A stretch of 64,000 nucleotides of DNA from contig NZ_QBKT01000011.1 of the NCBI RefSeq assembly GCF_003054265.1, forward strand, positions 62,001 to 126,000, given 5' to 3'. Below the pieces are notes generated by a model that was not told the origin of the DNA, did not search any database, and saw only the letters and a program-made list of their open reading frames with translations. Positions 3,112-58,681 of this stretch are shown here, piece after piece. The stretch's first letter is position 1. Every line of letters starts with the position of its first letter. The translations under genes and the position numbers were made by a program. This stretch comes from Kordia periserrulae. Its GTDB lineage: Bacteria; Bacteroidota; Bacteroidia; Flavobacteriales; Flavobacteriaceae.

Positions 3112-3238
3112 AGGTTATTTGAAATGTGGTTTTCTCAAAATTTCGTTAAGAAATGGGAATCTATAGAATTACGGTTTTACCATACACTTTTTATGCAATG
3201 TATTTGTATTTTTAGGTCATAACTTAAACCAATACATC

Positions 3239-3463
3239 ATGAAAAAAAGAAATTTTAAAAAATTATCGCTTCAAAAAAATGTGATTTCCAACTTTAAAAA
3301 TACTGCTGTTAAAGGTGGTGCACCAACTAACGGGAAAAATTGTGATCCAGTTCCTCCTGCAGAATCTGAATTATGCGTAACATTGATAACTTGTTATTGT
3401 AGTGATATTAACGGATGTCAGCTTACATTTATCATTGATACTGACGGCAATTTAACTTGCTAA
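3239..3463 (+). CDS. Class I lanthipeptide-like precursor peptide (GG leader)
   Basis: A 74-aa peptide with a basic leader (MKKRNFKKLSLQKNVISNF) of the KLxLxKxxIxxL type seen in Bacteroidota class I lanthipeptide precursors. The leader ends in KGG at residues 25-27. The core of about 47 aa is rich in Ser/Thr and has six Cys (35, 46, 52, 54, 60, 74), so it could form thioether or disulfide rings. No LanB, LanC or peptidase-ABC transporter gene is adjacent; the next gene is an M14 metallopeptidase. A strong terminator 25 bp after the stop makes it a monocistronic unit. Assignment as a RiPP precursor rests on leader style only. Confidence 0.7.
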   Translation: MKKRNFKKLSLQKNVISNFKNTAVKGGAPTNGKNCDPVPPAESELCVTLITCYCSDINGCQLTFIIDTDGNLTC

Positions 3464-39696: not shown

Positions 39697-39819
39697 AATG
39701 GCTATTTAGAAAGATTAAATATAAGACATATTTTAGAAAGAAAGTATGTTTTGCTGGCAATACTTTTTTGTGCGACTTAAAATATAATGCCTTCACGCCT
39801 ATAAATACTTGTCGATTGT

Positions 39820-39827
39820 TATTTTTG
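39820..39827 (+). promoter_or_regulatory. -7 box for the pseudouridine synthase
   Basis: TATTTTTG, an exact TAnnTTTG match, lying 14 nt before the TTG proposed as start at 39842. Confidence 0.45.
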
Positions 39828-39841
39828 TAAAAAGATTGTTT

Positions 39842-40729
39842 TTGAAACTTCTCGAAACTCATATTGTCTCTCAACTCACGAATCCACAACGAATTCAAGA
39901 GTATGATGTTTCTCATTTTAAAAGTGTGGCTACCAAAAGTGCTTTTAAAAAAATGCTTAAAAAACAGTTGATTACTGTAAACGACAAAAAAGCAACTACT
40001 GCAACTTATGTTTCTGAAAATGATGTCATTAAAATTCATGAAGCAGAAACTATTGTCAAAAAAATATTCAAGTTGAGTATTCCTGTTATTTTTGAAGATA
40101 ACGATATTGCTATTATCAATAAACCCGCAGGATTTCCCACGAATGGTAATTATTTTAAAACCATTGAAAATGCGTTGCCACACAATTTAAAAGTTTCAAC
40201 TGCTCATGATGCGCTTTCCTATCCAAAAGCGGTACATCGATTGGACAATCCGACAAGTGGTATTTTAATCATTGCGAAAACCAAAAGTGCGCAACGAGAG
40301 TTATACCGACAGTTTGAACAACAAAAAATTAACAAGATTTATGAAGCCATAGTGATTGGTAAAACCAATGAAAAAGGCGAAATTACCTCAGCAGTTTTTG
40401 AAAAAGAAGCGTTTACTAGTTACAAAACGCTTCAAACCGTTCCATCTCTTCAAAACAAATTTTTATCACATGTACAATTAGTTCCAAAAACAGGACGCAC
40501 ACATCAATTGCGTGTACATTTAGCCAGCATCAATCATCCTATTGTGGGCGATCAATTGTACGGAAAGGAAGCTGAAAATTATAAAAAAGGATTGTTTTTG
40601 TGCGCGACTTCAATTGCATTTGCACATCCCAAAACGGGAGAAAAGTTAGCGTTTTCCATTCATCCACCTAACAAATTTAAAAGCTTATTAGTGCGTGAAG
40701 CGAAACGATTTTTGAAGTTTAATGATTAG
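39842..40729 (+). CDS. RluA-family pseudouridine synthase
   Basis: An RNA-modifying enzyme with the RluA catalytic motif AVHRLDNPTSGILIIAK, in which the Asp is the nucleophile, plus PKTGRTHQLRVHL near residue 220. The N-terminal 80 aa look like a degenerate S4 domain (KKMLKKQLITVNDKKAT). The frame is open from 39809, but no ATG precedes the conserved region. Because a TATTTTTG box sits at 39820-39827, the start is most likely TTG at 39842 or 39836, giving about 295 aa. The exact target uridine cannot be told. Confidence 0.85.
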   Translation: MKLLETHIVSQLTNPQRIQEYDVSHFKSVATKSAFKKMLKKQLITVNDKKATTATYVSENDVIKIHEAETIVKKIFKLSIPVIFEDNDIAIINKPAGFPTNGNYFKTIENALPHNLKVSTAHDALSYPKAVHRLDNPTSGILIIAKTKSAQRELYRQFEQQKINKIYEAIVIGKTNEKGEITSAVFEKEAFTSYKTLQTVPSLQNKFLSHVQLVPKTGRTHQLRVHLASINHPIVGDQLYGKEAENYKKGLFLCATSIAFAHPKTGEKLAFSIHPPNKFKSLLVREAKRFLKFND

Positions 40730-40730
40730 A

Positions 40731-40810
40731 TTTCTTCGAAATTAGACTGTTTTAGACTTCTTTGAAGTTAGACTTTGTTAGATTTTTGGAATTCTTCGAA
40801 GTTAGATTGT
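40731..40810. repeat. Three imperfect TTCTTyGAAGTTAGACT repeats
   Basis: Direct copies at about 40731-40749, 40757-40775 and 40791-40809, immediately after the pseudouridine synthase stop. They are non-coding. Confidence 0.6.
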
Positions 40811-40823
40811 TTTTTTCCAAAAA

Positions 40824-40880
40824 AATCTCCAAAATGAGCGCTTGATGTGTCAAACTTTTCATGTTGGAGATTGTTTTTTA
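40824..40880 (+). terminator. Probable terminator of the pseudouridine synthase
   Basis: Arms AATCTCCAA (40824-40832) and TTGGAGATT (40864-40872) enclose a small inner TTGA/TCAA hairpin, followed by GTTTTTTATC. Confidence 0.55.
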
Positions 40881-40896
40881 TCTTTTTTTAAATTTA

Positions 40897-41037
40897 CTAA
40901 GAAGAAATATATTGTGTAATGGCGTTCATGGCTTTATCTGCCATTTTTGCTTTGTTCACAGTAGTTTCTTGAGTTTCTGTTCCACCTTTGATGGTAGAAA
41001 CATTTTTAATTTTTAGTGCTGTTAACTTTTGTATCAT
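40897..41037 (-). CDS. GG-leader peptide A1 (RiPP-like), no cysteine
   Basis: A 46-aa peptide translated by hand. It starts MIQKLTALKIKNVSTIKGG, with the double glycine at 18-19, and ends TQYISS. The putative core is 27 aa, Thr/Lys/Met rich, without Cys. It is clearly paralogous to the next gene upstream (same MIQKLTA start, same GG position, shared ADK..M..IT..). It is the last of six short genes in a row on this strand. No modification enzyme is adjacent. Confidence 0.6.
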   Translation of the reverse strand: MIQKLTALKIKNVSTIKGGTETQETTVNKAKMADKAMNAITQYISS

Positions 41038-41067
41038 AATTGTATGTTTTGGTAATTTTCTACTGCG

Positions 41068-41199
41068 TTACGATTGCATTAGCTGTGTTATTTTATTGTG
41101 CATTTTGTCTGCACTTTTTCTTCTTTCCGTATCGCTTTCTTCTCCTCCGACAATTTTAGCCGCGTTTGTAATTTTGAATGCTGTTAACTTTTGTATCAT
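41068..41199 (-). CDS. GG-leader peptide A2 (RiPP-like), paralog of A1
   Basis: A 43-aa peptide beginning MIQKLTAFKITNAAKIVGG (GG at 18-19) with a charged core (EESDTERRKSADKMHNK) ending LMQS. It shares the leader and C-terminal pattern with A1, 30 bp downstream, which suggests a tandem duplication. No Cys. This could be a secreted signal or bacteriocin-like peptide, but it might equally be a non-RiPP exported peptide. Confidence 0.6.
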   Translation of the reverse strand: MIQKLTAFKITNAAKIVGGEESDTERRKSADKMHNKITQLMQS

Positions 41200-41268
41200 A
41201 ATTTTAAGTATTTGGTTAATAATTAGTAAGATACAAAAAAAAGCGAACCGAAGTTCTCTCTATTTTCA

Positions 41269-41409
41269 TTAATCTAACCAGCAGTCCCACCAAGTATTGC
41301 AAGCAGATCCAACACCCGAACCTCCTTTTACCTTGTCAATTTCAGTTACTTTTAGTTTTGAAACGCGCTTTTTAGATAAGTTTAATTTTTTTAGATTTCT
41401 TTTTTTCAT
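41269..41409 (-). CDS. Lanthipeptide-like precursor with KGG leader and two Cys
   Basis: A 46-aa peptide. The leader MKKRNLKKLNLSKKRVSKL matches the Bacteroidota class I lanthipeptide style (KLxLxKxxVSxL) and is close to the 74-aa precursor at 3239. KGG is at 28-30. The short core (16 aa) is SGVGSACNTWWDCWLD-like, with C37, C43 and three Trp. Ser/Thr upstream of Cys could make thioethers. No LanB or LanC is visible. Confidence 0.68.
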   Translation of the reverse strand: MKKRNLKKLNLSKKRVSKLKVTEIDKVKGGSGVGSACNTWWDCWLD

Positions 41410-41454
41410 GATTTGATTATTTATGGTTAATAAAAAGTTAATTAGCAGAAATAT

Positions 41455-41604
41455 CTATTCCCATTGTGTGGTTGCCGTACAATTTGTCTGACAGCCGGTT
41501 TGCTGTTGATTGCTTTGCGTGGCTCCACCTTTAATGGCTGCTGTGTCAAACGTTGAAATAGTTTCTTTTGCTAAATTCAAATTGATTAGTCTTTTAGATT
41601 TCAT
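41455..41604 (-). CDS. Lanthipeptide-like precursor, Gln/Thr-rich core
   Basis: A 49-aa peptide with leader MKSKRLINLNLAKETISTF, which matches the NLxLxKxTIxxF pattern, and KGG at 25-27. The core is rich in Gln and Thr, with C38 and C42 (GCQTNCTATT), fitting small lanthionine rings. It is the fourth gene in coordinate order of the minus-strand peptide cluster, 45 bp from its neighbour. Confidence 0.68.
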   Translation of the reverse strand: MKSKRLINLNLAKETISTFDTAAIKGGATQSNQQQTGCQTNCTATTQWE

Positions 41605-41702
41605 GCTGTAATTTTGTTTGTTAATACTTAAATCTATAAAAACTAATACGGAATGAATTACGGGAATACCGTATTTTCCACTTTCAAAAAAGTTGACGTT
41701 TA

Positions 41703-41900
41703 TTATATCATACCTCCGTCACATAAATAACCTGTAGAGCCTTGCGAACCAAAAGTCTGGCACCAACCTGCCGTATTACAACAGTTGCCTGGTCCACATT
41801 CTCCATGTGAACTGCATTGTCTTTTTCCACCTGTGATAGCTTGTTGTTGTACTTTTTCTAATAATTGCACTCCGTCTAATTTTAAAATATTTTGCAACAT
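41703..41900 (-). CDS. Cysteine-rich GG-leader peptide
   Basis: A 65-aa peptide; the start is set at ATG 41900 (MLQNILKLDGVQLL) because the longer frame adds a basic non-leader stretch. The leader ends AITGG (GG at 24-25). The 40-aa core has six Cys at 29, 35, 40, 41, 47 and 60. The spacing C-x5-C-x4-CC-x5-C-x12-C, with many Gly, recalls knottin or hevein-like disulfide scaffolds. It is unlike the two-Cys neighbours and may be disulfide-rich rather than lanthionine. Confidence 0.68.
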   Translation of the reverse strand: MLQNILKLDGVQLLEKVQQQAITGGKRQCSSHGECGPGNCCNTAGWCQTFGSQGSTGYLCDGGMI

Positions 41901-42014
41901 AATTCTTATGTGTTTTATTGGTTTATACAATCGGAAAATTAGACAATCATTTTCACTGTTAAGTATGGTAAAACCTTACTTAACAAATAATTAAGATACT
42001 TGAATCTTGCATAT

Positions 42015-42104
42015 TTATAATAGAATAATGTATTCCGTGGCTGTAGCGCCGCCTGTAATATTTTCTGTGTTTGTGATTTCGAATTCTTGAAGTTTGTCTA
42101 CCAT
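42015..42104 (-). CDS. Very short GG-leader peptide
   Basis: A 29-aa peptide, MVDKLQEFEITNTENITGG, followed by a 10-aa hydrophobic core ending EYIILL. GG is at 18-19, the same spacing as in peptides A1 and A2. It is the most upstream of the six-gene peptide cluster. It is short enough that chance is possible, but the leader style and position support it. Confidence 0.5.
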   Translation of the reverse strand: MVDKLQEFEITNTENITGGATATEYIILL

Positions 42105-42157
42105 ATTTTCTAAATTTTAAATGAATTACTACGAAAGTATAAGTTCCAAAAATCATG

Positions 42158-42832
42158 TTACTTTACAGGAAAATCGAAATATTTATTATAATATGGCTCG
42201 CCGCGAAGTGTAAAATGCCACCATTCTTTCGGATAGTTTCGGAAACCGTTTTCCAACATCACTTTTTGCAATAGTTGACGATTTTCTAGTTGTTTTTCGG
42301 TTAACTCTTGATAGGAAACCCACGATATTTCTCCAAAAAAATCATACGAACTTCCCATGTCCAATTCCTGATTGGTTTTTAAATCGATAAGTGTAATATC
42401 AACCGTGCTTCCACTACTATGACGTGATTTGGTTGCGATGTATTCCAAGCGAAATAAATCTTTTTTGGCAACATTAGGATAAAACTGAGACTTCATCAGC
42501 GTATCGTTCAAATCGTATGCCCAACGACGAAAATGATCCACAGCACGTTGCGGTCGGTACGCATCAAATATTTTGATTCCTAACTGTTGCTTTTTGAGTG
42601 ATTTTTGTACGTTTTGCAATGCTTTCGTAGCAGGTAAGGTCAAAATACACTGTTCGGCTTCGTAACCATCAATTGGAGTTCCTACAAAATTATTTGAGCC
42701 AAAATAGCGCAATTCCAATTCAACATCGGGAATATAATCTGTGACATATACGAAGCCTTTAGGCAATTGAGAAGATGAATGTATTGAAGATATACATATG
42801 AGAATAAATAGTATCTTTAAGAACTTTAGCAT
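42158..42832 (-). CDS. D-alanyl-D-alanine dipeptidase-like (VanX/DdpX, M15D)
   Basis: A 224-aa exported enzyme (signal peptide MLKFLKILFILICISSIHS). The zinc site is H138-x6-D145 (SRHSSGSTVD) and H206 in E203-WWH, with Arg93 in DAYRPQR, as in VanX. It hydrolyses D-Ala-D-Ala dipeptide for wall recycling or D-amino-acid use. Without vanH or vanA it is not evidence of glycopeptide resistance. It directly precedes the peptide cluster in transcription direction and has its own leaderless-type promoter. Confidence 0.9.
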   Translation of the reverse strand: MLKFLKILFILICISSIHSSSQLPKGFVYVTDYIPDVELELRYFGSNNFVGTPIDGYEAEQCILTLPATKALQNVQKSLKKQQLGIKIFDAYRPQRAVDHFRRWAYDLNDTLMKSQFYPNVAKKDLFRLEYIATKSRHSSGSTVDITLIDLKTNQELDMGSSYDFFGEISWVSYQELTEKQLENRQLLQKVMLENGFRNYPKEWWHFTLRGEPYYNKYFDFPVK

Positions 42833-42836
42833 TAGA

Positions 42837-42844
42837 CAAATTTA
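42837..42844 (-). promoter_or_regulatory. -7 box for the VanX-like gene, implying leaderless start
   Basis: Minus-strand TAAATTTG, then TCTA, then ATG: the same 4-nt spacing to the start codon as at recR. Confidence 0.45.
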
Positions 42845-42873
42845 CTATTTGTAAAATTACACATTAAAACCGC

Positions 42874-44061
42874 ATGAACAAGACAAAAAAATCGAGTAAC
42901 GATAATTTTTGGAAAATAATGACAACCATTATCATTGGAGGAACACTTTTAATTTTGGCTGTTTACTTTGGAAAAAAATATAAAGCTTCTCAAAAAACAG
43001 TAGAAATTACTAAATTTTATAATCAATTCTCAGATGATGATTATATCGATTTTGCAAAACAGCTTGAAGCATCAATATACGAAAATCGCCTTGAAGAGTT
43101 TAACAAGAAAGTAAATATAGCTTCACTATTAAATTTTTCAAATCAAGAACTGGCAGGAAGTTACAAAAAACGTACAGCCGTTAATTTTCTCAAATCATAT
43201 ATAAAAATTGGAAACTCCATAACAAATCAATTAGCACGTCCTAAGGATTTCAAGTATCTAAACTTTTACAAAAAAGAAGGAGTACCACATATTGTGTTTA
43301 GAGTTTATCGCTCTGATATCATAAATTTTATGGATTTTACTTTAGGGATTAAAAAAGATAAAATCATTATTAATGATATTTATAATTTCTTTTCGGGAGT
43401 TGCTTTTTCAGAAATGGCGTCAAAACTATATTATGAAGCGATGAACGAAGAAAATCAGTCATTTGAAGCTATAAGAAAGTATCAATCAGTCCAAAATTTC
43501 ATCTCAATTGGCGACTATGAATCTGCTTATGATCTTTTAAAATCTATTGGTATTGAAAATAGAAATGACAATCATTATGGTTTTTTATTAATTACCGCTT
43601 CAAATCTTAGCTTTGATTTGCTTTTGGAAGTCATCACAGAAATGAAAACCCAGTTTTCAGAAGATGAGCGATTGCAAGCCTATTTGGATTTTCATGAAAA
43701 AGCCATCACAGGTGATTTGAAAGATTTGAGTGCCGCAGCAGAACATTTAAAAAAATACACAGGCGATGATATTGTGTACGATTTGTACAAAGGAATTTAC
43801 TTTTATTTAAAAAATGAATATGAAGAAGCCTTGATATTCTTCAATCGTACGATTCAAAAAGATCCTACTTTTTTTGACGCATACAATTACAAACTCTTTA
43901 GCCTACTAATGCTGAATGAAGAAGAGAAAGCTCTGAATGTACTTGTTGAGTTGAAAAAAGATTTTTCAATTAGCGAAGAAACAATCATACTTGAGCTTCA
44001 AGATTTTCCTGAATTTATAGCATCTGAGGCGTTTCAAAACACTTTTAAAAATGCTGAATAA
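42874..44061 (+). CDS. Membrane-anchored TPR-like protein, unknown
   Basis: A 395-aa protein with one N-terminal membrane helix (about 15-32, IMTTIIIGGTLLILAVYFG) and a soluble outer part. The C-terminal region (about 200-390) shows helical-pair repeats with TPR-like spacing (YDLYKGIYFYLKNEYEEALIFFNRTI). No enzymatic motif is seen. It overlaps the next gene by 11 bp, so they are probably co-translated. The partner protein is unknown. Confidence 0.7.
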   Translation: MNKTKKSSNDNFWKIMTTIIIGGTLLILAVYFGKKYKASQKTVEITKFYNQFSDDDYIDFAKQLEASIYENRLEEFNKKVNIASLLNFSNQELAGSYKKRTAVNFLKSYIKIGNSITNQLARPKDFKYLNFYKKEGVPHIVFRVYRSDIINFMDFTLGIKKDKIIINDIYNFFSGVAFSEMASKLYYEAMNEENQSFEAIRKYQSVQNFISIGDYESAYDLLKSIGIENRNDNHYGFLLITASNLSFDLLLEVITEMKTQFSEDERLQAYLDFHEKAITGDLKDLSAAAEHLKKYTGDDIVYDLYKGIYFYLKNEYEEALIFFNRTIQKDPTFFDAYNYKLFSLLMLNEEEKALNVLVELKKDFSISEETIILELQDFPEFIASEAFQNTFKNAE

Positions 44062-58525: not shown

Positions 58526-58681
58526 ATGAAAAAACAACATTTAAATTCGTTACAATTAAACAAAAGAGCCATTTCAAATTTCACATCAAATGCAATTACT
58601 GGAGGAGATAAGATAACATTAACAATCGTTAAGTCATGCGTTGGTGTTTGCTACAGTGATCTTTGTGATACTACTGATTGA
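58526..58681 (+). CDS. Lanthipeptide-like precursor with KLxLxK-type leader
   Basis: A 51-aa peptide found by hand. The leader MKKQHLNSLQLNKRAISNF has the LxLxKxxIxxF pattern, and TGG lies at 25-27. The core has C38, C42 and C47 with adjacent Ser/Thr (KSCVGVCYSDLCDTTD-like). It is closely similar in style to the 3239 and 41269 precursors, yet far from both. A terminator follows 28 bp after its stop. No modification gene is near. Confidence 0.65.
   Translation: MKKQHLNSLQLNKRAISNFTSNAITGGDKITLTIVKSCVGVCYSDLCDTTD

What the first reader, a model, noticed from the sequence alone, without database searches (positions are those of the whole stretch)
40897..42104. Six consecutive tiny GG-leader peptide genes with no maturation enzymes
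Seen: six ORFs of 29-65 codons in a row on the minus strand, each with a leader ending in (K/T/V)GG, spaced 30-115 bp apart. Three classes are mixed: Lys-rich KLxLxKxxI leaders with two-Cys cores, MIQKLTA leaders without Cys, and a six-Cys core. Known: KLxLxK leaders mark Bacteroidota class I lanthipeptides. Inference: a multi-product peptide locus whose enzymes act in trans from elsewhere in the genome, possibly a new type of distributed RiPP pathway.
Basis: partly seen in the sequence, partly recalled or inferred. Interest (0 to 1): 0.78.

Follow-up and report, generated by a model that had tools for sequence, protein, structure and literature searches.

The report
Scattered peptide genes sharing distant enzymes
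A marine Kordia bacterium carries well over a hundred tiny peptide genes scattered around its genome, far from the single enzyme set that probably finishes many of them, and some of these genes share one on-switch sequence, which would make this an unusually large, spread-out peptide factory.

Summary
Confirmed: six GG-leader peptide genes (29-65 codons) lie in a row on the minus strand at 40897-42104. All five sequence types show purifying selection, and relatives stand at the same place in 8 Kordia loci but in 0 of 73 non-Kordia loci. They are three kinds: two KLxLxK class I lanthipeptide-type precursors, one six-Cys knottin-like peptide, and three short peptides without Cys. No LanB or C39 gene is on this contig; the genome's only LanB (split) lies with LanC and a C39 transporter on another contig. 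All 11 genus genomes have one LanB and 71-144 leader hits. In this genome I count 124 KLxLxK precursors at 69 places, 3 within 10 kb of LanB. Leaders co-occur with LanB across genera. New here: a palindrome, TACGG-N5-CCGTA, usually with TAnnTT exactly 22 nt after it, stands 50-62 nt before a minority of precursors, lanthipeptide-type and MLQ/MLK-type, including one in this cluster. Best reading: a prochlorosin-like distributed pathway on class I enzymes, partly co-regulated. Kordia's RiPP richness is already published. No modification or expression has been shown.

The parts
42015..42104 (-). 29-aa GG-leader peptide; leader MVDKLQEFEITNTENITGG, core ATATEYIILL; short linear peptide, pheromone-like (a guess)
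   Evidence: 6 intact relatives in other Kordia loci, ATEYII or STEYII in the core of all 7; pN/pS core 0.20, leader 0.44
41703..41900 (-). 65-aa peptide, MLQNILKL...ITGG leader and six-Cys core; probably a disulfide knottin-like peptide
   Evidence: six Cys invariant in 5 of 5 sequences (window plus 4 Kordia loci); AlphaFold pLDDT 76, weak Foldseek matches to squash cystine knots, best E 0.5
41455..41604 (-). 49-aa KLxLxK-type precursor, two-Cys core (TGCQTNC); probable LanB/LanC substrate
   Evidence: NF038153 13.1 bits, under the cut-off of 22; relatives in L097 and L227, pN/pS core 0.07; operator 54 nt upstream
41269..41409 (-). 46-aa KLxLxK-type class I lanthipeptide precursor, core SGVGSACNTWWDCWLD
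   Evidence: NF038153 23.3 bits, over the cut-off of 22; relatives in 5 other Kordia loci; the residue two before the first core Cys is Ser or Thr in 6 of 6 (read)
41068..41199 (-). 43-aa GG-leader peptide without Cys (MIQKLTA type, copy a)
   Evidence: family conserved in Kordia, pN/pS 0.45 overall; no NCBIfam hit
40897..41037 (-). 46-aa GG-leader peptide without Cys (MIQKLTA type, copy b), tail ADKAMNAITQYISS
   Evidence: tail nearly identical in L100 and L228, similar in L226
41659..41673 (-). palindromic operator TACGGTATTCCCGTA, 54 nt before the ATG of 41455-41604
   Evidence: genus-wide 242 perfect sites in 11 genomes against 15 for the reversed pattern
41631..41636 (-). -10-like element TAGATT, exactly 22 nt after the operator
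   Evidence: the same spacing in 66 of 70 operator-precursor pairs
3239..3463 (+). another KLxLxK precursor in the window (74 aa, Cys-containing core)
   Evidence: NF038153 11.1 bits, under the cut-off
3170..3184 (+). operator TACGGTTTTACCATA (1 mismatch), 54 nt before the ATG at 3239, with TATTTT 22 nt after it
58526..58681 (+). another KLxLxK precursor in the window (51 aa, three-Cys core); no operator seen in the 110 nt upstream
   Evidence: NF038153 19.9 bits, under the cut-off
42158..42832 (-). boundary gene: M15 D-Ala-D-Ala dipeptidase family (not part of the system)
   Evidence: Pfam PF01427; no such peptide within 1.5 kb downstream in 73 of 73 non-Kordia loci tested
39809..40729 (+). 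boundary gene: RNA pseudouridine synthase (not part of the system)
   Evidence: Pfam PF00849

Best explanation
This is one of about 69 outposts of a genome-wide, class I version of the prochlorosin arrangement. SHOWN by sequence: conserved GG-leader peptide genes; one split LanB plus LanC plus C39 ABC transporter locus on another contig; 124 precursors with alike leaders (44% mean identity) and unlike Cys/Thr-rich cores (17%), nearly all more than 10 kb from LanB and C39 genes on their contigs; a palindrome at a fixed promoter position before a minority of them. INFERRED: the KLxLxK leader recruits the C7 LanB pair, which dehydrates core Ser/Thr through glutamyl-tRNA; LanC closes lanthionine rings with the core Cys; the C39 transporter of the same locus cuts after GG and exports the product. 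The six-Cys peptide follows a second route: GG cleavage by a C39 protein, perhaps the C39-VKOR fusion, and disulfide folding. The three peptides without Cys are only cleaved and exported, possibly as signals. A dimeric activator at TACGG-N5-CCGTA (centre about 40 bp before the start if TAnnTT is the -10 element) switches on a subset of these genes together; in this cluster it would drive 41455-41604, probably with 41269-41409 behind it.
For: One LanB-N match in this genome and in each of 11 of 11 genus genomes, beside LanC and LanB-C. NF038153 hits of 71-144 per genome in 11 of 11, at most 150 candidates scored per genome. Central locus found in 10 of 10 further Kordia genomes, LanB-N 88-98% and C39 transporter 94-99% identical. 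Leader over the cut-off in 6 of 149 genera, all 6 with LanB, while LanB is in 15 of 149 (p 4e-7). In the class sample LanB in 18 of 21 leader-positive genomes against 4 of 20 comparators (p 3e-5; 5 of 21 and p 1e-4 if the left-out G127 is added). Cores 11.8% Cys and 12.6% Thr against 0.7% and 6.1% in ORFs of 200 aa or more; 518 of 559 core Cys have Ser/Thr within the six preceding residues, no control run. 3 of 124 precursors within 10 kb of LanB. Same-place locus with conserved cores. Operator.
Against: No mass spectrum, transcript or enzyme assay. Of the six only 41269-41409 passes the NF038153 cut-off; 41455-41604 scores 13.1. 9 of 15 LanB-positive genera have no leader over the cut-off. 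G213 (99% complete) has a leader but no LanB found; so do G210 (72%) and G516 (59%), which are incomplete. Only 24 of 124 precursors carry the operator at the fixed place, and none of the 11 LanB loci has it at up to 1 mismatch. Loosely scanned, 19 of 386 ordinary genes also have a site with up to 2 mismatches somewhere in 120 nt upstream (25 of 134 KLxLxK). 21 of 57 perfect sites in two genomes were not before a GG precursor by my rule. The genome is in 38 contigs, so distances between contigs are unknown. The knottin match is weak (best E 0.5).
Confidence: 0.72

Rival explanations
1. Unmodified secreted peptides: all six are only cut after GG and exported by C39 transporters, with Cys-rich cores folding through disulfides. 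LanB serves only the few precursors beside it.
For: Three of the six have no Cys at all; the six-Cys core looks like a cystine knot (weak); a C39-VKOR protein, which could make disulfides, lies beside an MLQ-type peptide on contig C13.
Against: KLxLxK leaders track LanB across genera; precursors beside LanB carry the same leader type as the scattered ones; cores are enriched in Thr as well as Cys.
Confidence: 0.2
2. Radical-SAM-modified RiPPs (TIGR04149 type): the leaders recruit a radical SAM maturase encoded elsewhere.
For: 41269-41409 scores 22.2 bits to TIGR04149, under its cut-off of 25; one radical SAM gene with a C39 transporter exists on C2.
Against: The same peptide scores over the cut-off for NF038153; the C2 radical SAM locus has its own peptide with a different leader and core. 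The genome was not searched for other radical SAM maturases.
Confidence: 0.06
3. Decaying relics: gene remnants of former clusters without present function.
For: Presence varies from species to species; in L099 two of the genes are broken, one by an early stop and one by a frameshift (read by eye).
Against: Pooled pN/pS 0.24-0.45 in five of five types, with cores more constrained than leaders in four of five; operator and -10 spacing kept.
Confidence: 0.03

Closest known systems
Prochlorosins / synechococsins (ProcM, SyncM; class II)
   Same: One promiscuous enzyme, many precursors (79 putative ones for SyncM) that can be scattered over the genome (PMC10783134, passages)
   Different: Here class I: split LanB plus LanC, KLxLxK leaders rather than Nif11, about 124 precursors, Bacteroidota, with a palindromic operator on a minority
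Bacteroidetes class I lanthipeptides with LxLxKx5L leaders (NF038153)
   Same: Leader motif, GG end, C39 protease often in the cluster (PMC7268733, passages); one member here passes the curated cut-off
   Different: The precursors of that survey are described as lying in clusters with their enzymes; here 121 of 124 were not within 10 kb of LanB
Kordia as a RiPP-rich genus (TrRiPP, PMC11118758)
   Same: That survey names Kordia as an example, reports up to 176 precursors per Bacteroidota genome, mentions LanC with a nucleotidyltransferase near Kordia precursors, and suggests ProcM-like distant enzymes for precursors without neighbours in general (section 7 and passages)
   Different: In the parts I read no one-LanB count, synteny, selection test or operator; figures and supplements not seen
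Squash-type cystine-knot peptides (knottins)
   Same: The six-Cys core of 41703-41900 gives squash-type cystine knots as its best 15 structural matches
   Different: E 0.5 or worse, 21-30% identity over 21-24 columns; bacterial GG leader

Membership tests
Class I lanthipeptide (NF038153 leader) | Leader scores over the curated cut-off | tested here: met
   41269-41409 only: 23.3 against 22. 41455-41604: 13.1, not met. The other four genes: no NF038153 hit.
Class I lanthipeptide (NF038153 leader) | LanB and LanC in the same genome | tested here: met
   PF04738 full length plus PF14028 and PF05147 in one locus on contig C7; further LanC genes were not searched
Class I lanthipeptide (NF038153 leader) | Core with Ser/Thr and Cys able to form rings | tested here: met
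   For 41269-41409 and 41455-41604; not met for 42015-42104, 41068-41199 and 40897-41037, which have no Cys
Class I lanthipeptide (NF038153 leader) | Lanthionine in the product | not testable with these tools
   Needs mass spectrometry
Prochlorosin-type distributed pathway (works like) | One enzyme set, many scattered precursors with alike leaders and unlike cores | tested here: met
   As to gene layout and sequence. That the one enzyme set acts on them was not tested.
Prochlorosin family (is a member) | Nif11-type leader with class II LanM (ProcM-like) | tested here: not met
   The one leader over a cut-off matches NF038153, and the enzyme found is a split LanB; LanM was not searched
TIGR04149 radical-SAM-modified RiPP | Leader over the curated cut-off | tested here: not met
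   22.2 against 25
Knottin (six-Cys peptide only) | Three-disulfide cystine-knot fold | tested here: inconclusive
   pLDDT 76, Foldseek best E 0.5, probability 0.93; no significant PDB sequence match

The most novel reading that the evidence does not exclude
Kordia runs one coordinated secreted-peptide programme: a single palindrome-binding activator turns on dozens of scattered genes for chemically different GG peptides (lanthipeptides, knottin-like peptides) together with small secreted proteins, and one very conserved C39 exporter cuts and ships them. The cell would release a mixed peptide cocktail that evolves by gain and loss of single precursor genes.
Probability: 0.35. Interest if true: 0.85.

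Novelty: new variant of a known kind. Interest (0 to 1): 0.68.

Why it matters
If true, this is the class I counterpart of the prochlorosins: one split LanB/LanC pair facing about a hundred unlike cores, a natural test of how far a glutamyl-tRNA-dependent dehydratase tolerates its substrates. It also shows why mining by gene clusters would undercount these peptides, since 121 of 124 precursors were not found within 10 kb of LanB. The operator says which precursors may be switched on together and can be used to find the regulator and the inducing condition.

Tried and rejected
Rfam search of 40700-42900: no match. Sigma-70 promoter scan: 7 sites against 5.5 expected, uninformative. PDB sequence search with the six-Cys core: best E 0.55 to snake three-finger toxins over 19 residues, judged a chance match. 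Pfam gave nothing of use for the six peptides (two weak chance hits, E 0.05 and 0.17). Two of the small secreted proteins of the operator set, L284 and L305, have no Pfam family. The regulator was not identified: the LanB loci carry no operator at up to 1 mismatch, so autoregulation by the sigma-like or AraC-type genes there is not supported. The M15 dipeptidase as an immunity gene was considered and dropped, because the same gene stands without peptides in 73 of 73 non-Kordia loci. A k-mer search for other upstream motifs in the 110 precursors without the palindrome gave mostly AT-rich words. Ten neighbouring genes, 31.6-50.9 kb, look like household genes. The palindrome was not seen in 873 kb of non-Kordia loci, nor was its reversed control, which is too little to say it is confined to Kordia.

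In the titles and abstract beginnings listed, and in the passages read, I saw no account of the Kordia one-LanB arrangement or the operator; most subscription journals are not held and supplements could not be read. The search for Kordia with lanthipeptide gave 5 papers, of which I saw passages of all 5: PMC7477175 (a lanthipeptide cluster listed for Kordia), PMC10734526 (a Kordia proteusin cluster), PMC11118758, PMC13101523 (Kordia cluster counts, mainly NRPS) and PMC9860996 (one Kordia isolate).

Comparator choice: of the 22 leader-positive genomes I tested the 21 others than this genome. The 20 comparators were 19 of the 20 no-match genomes printed plus G350, which has a sub-cut-off hit. 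G127, printed as no-match, was left out and is LanB-positive; with it the comparators are 5 of 21 and p is 1e-4. Eight other genomes with sub-cut-off hits were not tested.

Full report
WHAT IS THERE. The six ORFs exist as described, on the minus strand between an M15 peptidase gene and an RNA pseudouridine synthase gene. Lengths are 29, 65, 49, 46, 43 and 46 aa; each has a GG-type leader end. They fall into three kinds. Kind 1: 41269-41409 and 41455-41604 have Lys-rich KLxLxK leaders and two-Cys cores. The first passes NCBIfam NF038153 'class I lanthipeptide' (23.3 against 22), the second scores 13.1. Kind 2: 41703-41900 has an MLQNILKL leader and six Cys. Kind 3: 42015-42104, 41068-41199 and 40897-41037 have short leaders of the form MxxKLxxxxIxN and no Cys. 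Two more kind 1 precursors lie elsewhere in the window, at 3239-3463 and 58526-58681; both score under the NF038153 cut-off (11.1 and 19.9).

REAL GENES. The M15 gene brought in five named Kordia loci, which sets the genus (nearest L097, Kordia sp. TARA_039_SRF, 90%). Three more loci, L226-L228, were fetched from genus genomes because the peptide profile had hit there, so they are not an independent test. All 8 carry one to five intact relatives of the six peptides beside the M15 gene, up to six GG peptides in all; in 6 of 8 an ORF resembling the pseudouridine synthase closes the other side (by eye). In L099 two of the genes are broken (by eye). The locus of two genus genomes, G152 and G157, was not located. 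Of 73 non-Kordia loci long enough to test, none has such a peptide within 1.5 kb downstream of the M15 gene by my rule, against 5 of 5 named Kordia loci. Pooled pN/pS is 0.34, 0.28, 0.24, 0.27 and 0.45 for the five sequence types; cores are more constrained than leaders in four of five, for example 0.07 against 0.41 for the 41455-41604 type, and slightly less in the MIQKLTA type, 0.49 against 0.38. Synonymous changes are near saturation, so these ratios are rough.

THE ENZYMES ARE ELSEWHERE. This genome has 99 NF038153 matches at E up to 10, 15 of them over the cut-off (13 alone, 2 with neighbours in the frame); a few weak ones are not precursors, such as a hit in an 890-aa frame. It has exactly one LanB N-domain match and five C39 matches over the cut-off, none on the contig of this window. 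The LanB locus reads: a sigma-70 region 2 protein of 185 aa, a TPR-containing protein, LanC, LanB-N (751 aa), LanB-C (302 aa), TPR-AraC-type regulators, precursors, HlyD and C39 ABC transporter. LanB-N matches NisB over nearly its whole length. All 11 genus genomes have one LanB match and 71-144 leader matches at E up to 1. The locus was found in 10 of 10 further genomes, with LanB-N 88-98% and C39 transporter 94-99% identical, three of the C39 genes cut by the end of the stretch.

COUNTING PRECURSORS. In 60 stretches around hits plus the window (667 kb) a strict rule finds 124 KLxLxK precursors; the same rule finds 1 in 873 kb of non-Kordia loci. They sit at 69 places on 14 contigs; 3 of 124 are within 10 kb of LanB and 4 within 10 kb of a C39 gene. 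122 of 124 cores contain Cys; two do not. Mean pairwise identity, over 1,500 random pairs, is 44% for leaders and 17% for cores. Cores are 11.8% Cys and 12.6% Thr against 0.7% and 6.1% in ORFs of 200 aa or more. The stretches were chosen around NF038153 hits, so isolated precursors missed by that model are not counted.

LEADER AND LANB GO TOGETHER. In one genome for each of 149 genera of the family, LanB is in 15 and a leader over the cut-off in 6, all of them LanB-positive (Fisher p 4e-7). Three further genomes had weaker matches only; one of them has LanB. Nine LanB-positive genera had no leader over the cut-off. In 395 genomes of the class 22 had a leader over the cut-off; LanB was found in 18 of the 21 others than this genome and in 4 of 20 comparators (p 3e-5); with the left-out G127 it is 5 of 21 and p 1e-4 (the choice is told under Tried and rejected). 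Elsewhere in the class I saw at most 19 leader hits per genome, but that search scored at most 19 candidates per genome, so it does not show that the Kordia expansion is unique.

A SHARED OPERATOR. Aligning the Kordia loci showed a palindrome before several peptides. Perfect TACGG-N5-CCGTA sites number 242 in 11 genomes against 15 for the reversed pattern. In this genome 13 of 23 perfect sites fall in the fetched stretches, which are 14% of the genome. For two genomes I fetched every perfect site (41 in G149; 16 in G150, whose contig length is that of K. algicida OT-1): 36 of 57 lie before a GG-leader precursor, both KLxLxK and MLK-ILxL types. 41 of 57 have TAnnTT exactly 22 nt downstream on at least one side; of the 21 sites not before a GG precursor, five stand 55-60 nt before small secreted proteins with that same spacing, one before a KLxLxK-like ORF without GG, and 13 have no such -10. 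Among 70 operator-precursor pairs with at most one mismatch, chosen by distance to the ATG and not by the -10 box, 66 have TAnnTT at +22 and the distance to the ATG is 50-62 nt. In this genome 24 of 124 KLxLxK precursors have a site with at most 2 mismatches at 48-66 nt, against 2 of 346 ordinary genes (p 4e-13). In an earlier, looser scan of 120 nt upstream the numbers were 25 of 134 and 4 of 4 MLQ-type against 19 of 386. In the cluster one perfect site stands 54 nt before 41455-41604, and a one-mismatch site 54 nt before the precursor at 3239. The six-Cys gene has a two-mismatch site about 63 nt upstream, and its relatives in L101 and L228 have better ones. The three genes without Cys have none at up to 2 mismatches, and none of the 11 LanB loci has a site at up to one mismatch. 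The position fits a class II activator site in a Bacteroidota promoter (promoter knowledge recalled).

HOW IT WORKS. The best reading is given in Best explanation. The in-trans step rests on co-occurrence, shared leaders and composition, not on chemistry. For the six-Cys peptide the model (pLDDT 76, five sequences) finds squash cystine knots as best matches, E 0.5; the C39-VKOR protein on C13 lies beside another MLQ-type peptide, which suggests a disulfide route. The ATEYIILL peptide and similar very short GG peptides occur in other Kordia genomes, sometimes in tandem copies; a signalling role is a guess.

AGAINST WHAT IS KNOWN. The LxLxKx5L leader with GG and C39 is known for Bacteroidetes class I lanthipeptides (PMC7268733, passages). 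Scattered precursors for one promiscuous enzyme are known for prochlorosins (PMC10783134, passages). Kordia as RiPP-rich is known (PMC11118758, section 7). What I did not see in nine paper searches and the passages read is the one-split-LanB, hundred-precursor arrangement in Kordia, the mixing of three peptide kinds at one place, or the operator. Hence: new variant of a known kind.

Noticed in passing
L094:6529-10682 (this genome, contig C2): A radical SAM gene with its own C39 ABC transporter follows a peptide with a repeated Trp pattern (WEEAWGESWGESW): a separate small RiPP locus.
   Followed up: partly
L058 (this genome, contig C3:245001-265000): Several 109-118 aa ORFs alike at the N-terminus, which look like nitrile-hydratase-type leader (proteusin) precursors (recalled, not tested), next to a C39 ABC transporter.
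   Followed up: no
L096:373-2290 (this genome, contig C13): A protein with a C39 peptidase domain and a VKOR domain lies beside an MLQ-type GG peptide: a candidate cutter and disulfide maker for the six-Cys peptide kind.
   Followed up: partly
L045 and L061, upstream of several precursors: A second recurring upstream element of the form GGAAGCCGAAAA...GAGTAGGC, seen by eye, stands before some precursors that lack the palindrome.
   Followed up: no
L229:3028-3639 and L231:2975-3331: Tandem near-identical copies of very short (30-34 aa) GG peptides in other Kordia genomes.
   Followed up: no
L284:697-1161, L305:153-632, L257, L267, L301: Small secreted proteins and lipoproteins have the same operator and -10 spacing as the precursors; the two tested have no Pfam family.
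   Followed up: partly
G210 (class sample): A 72% complete genome of another family has at least 19 leader hits, many in a dense array, and no LanB found.
   Followed up: no
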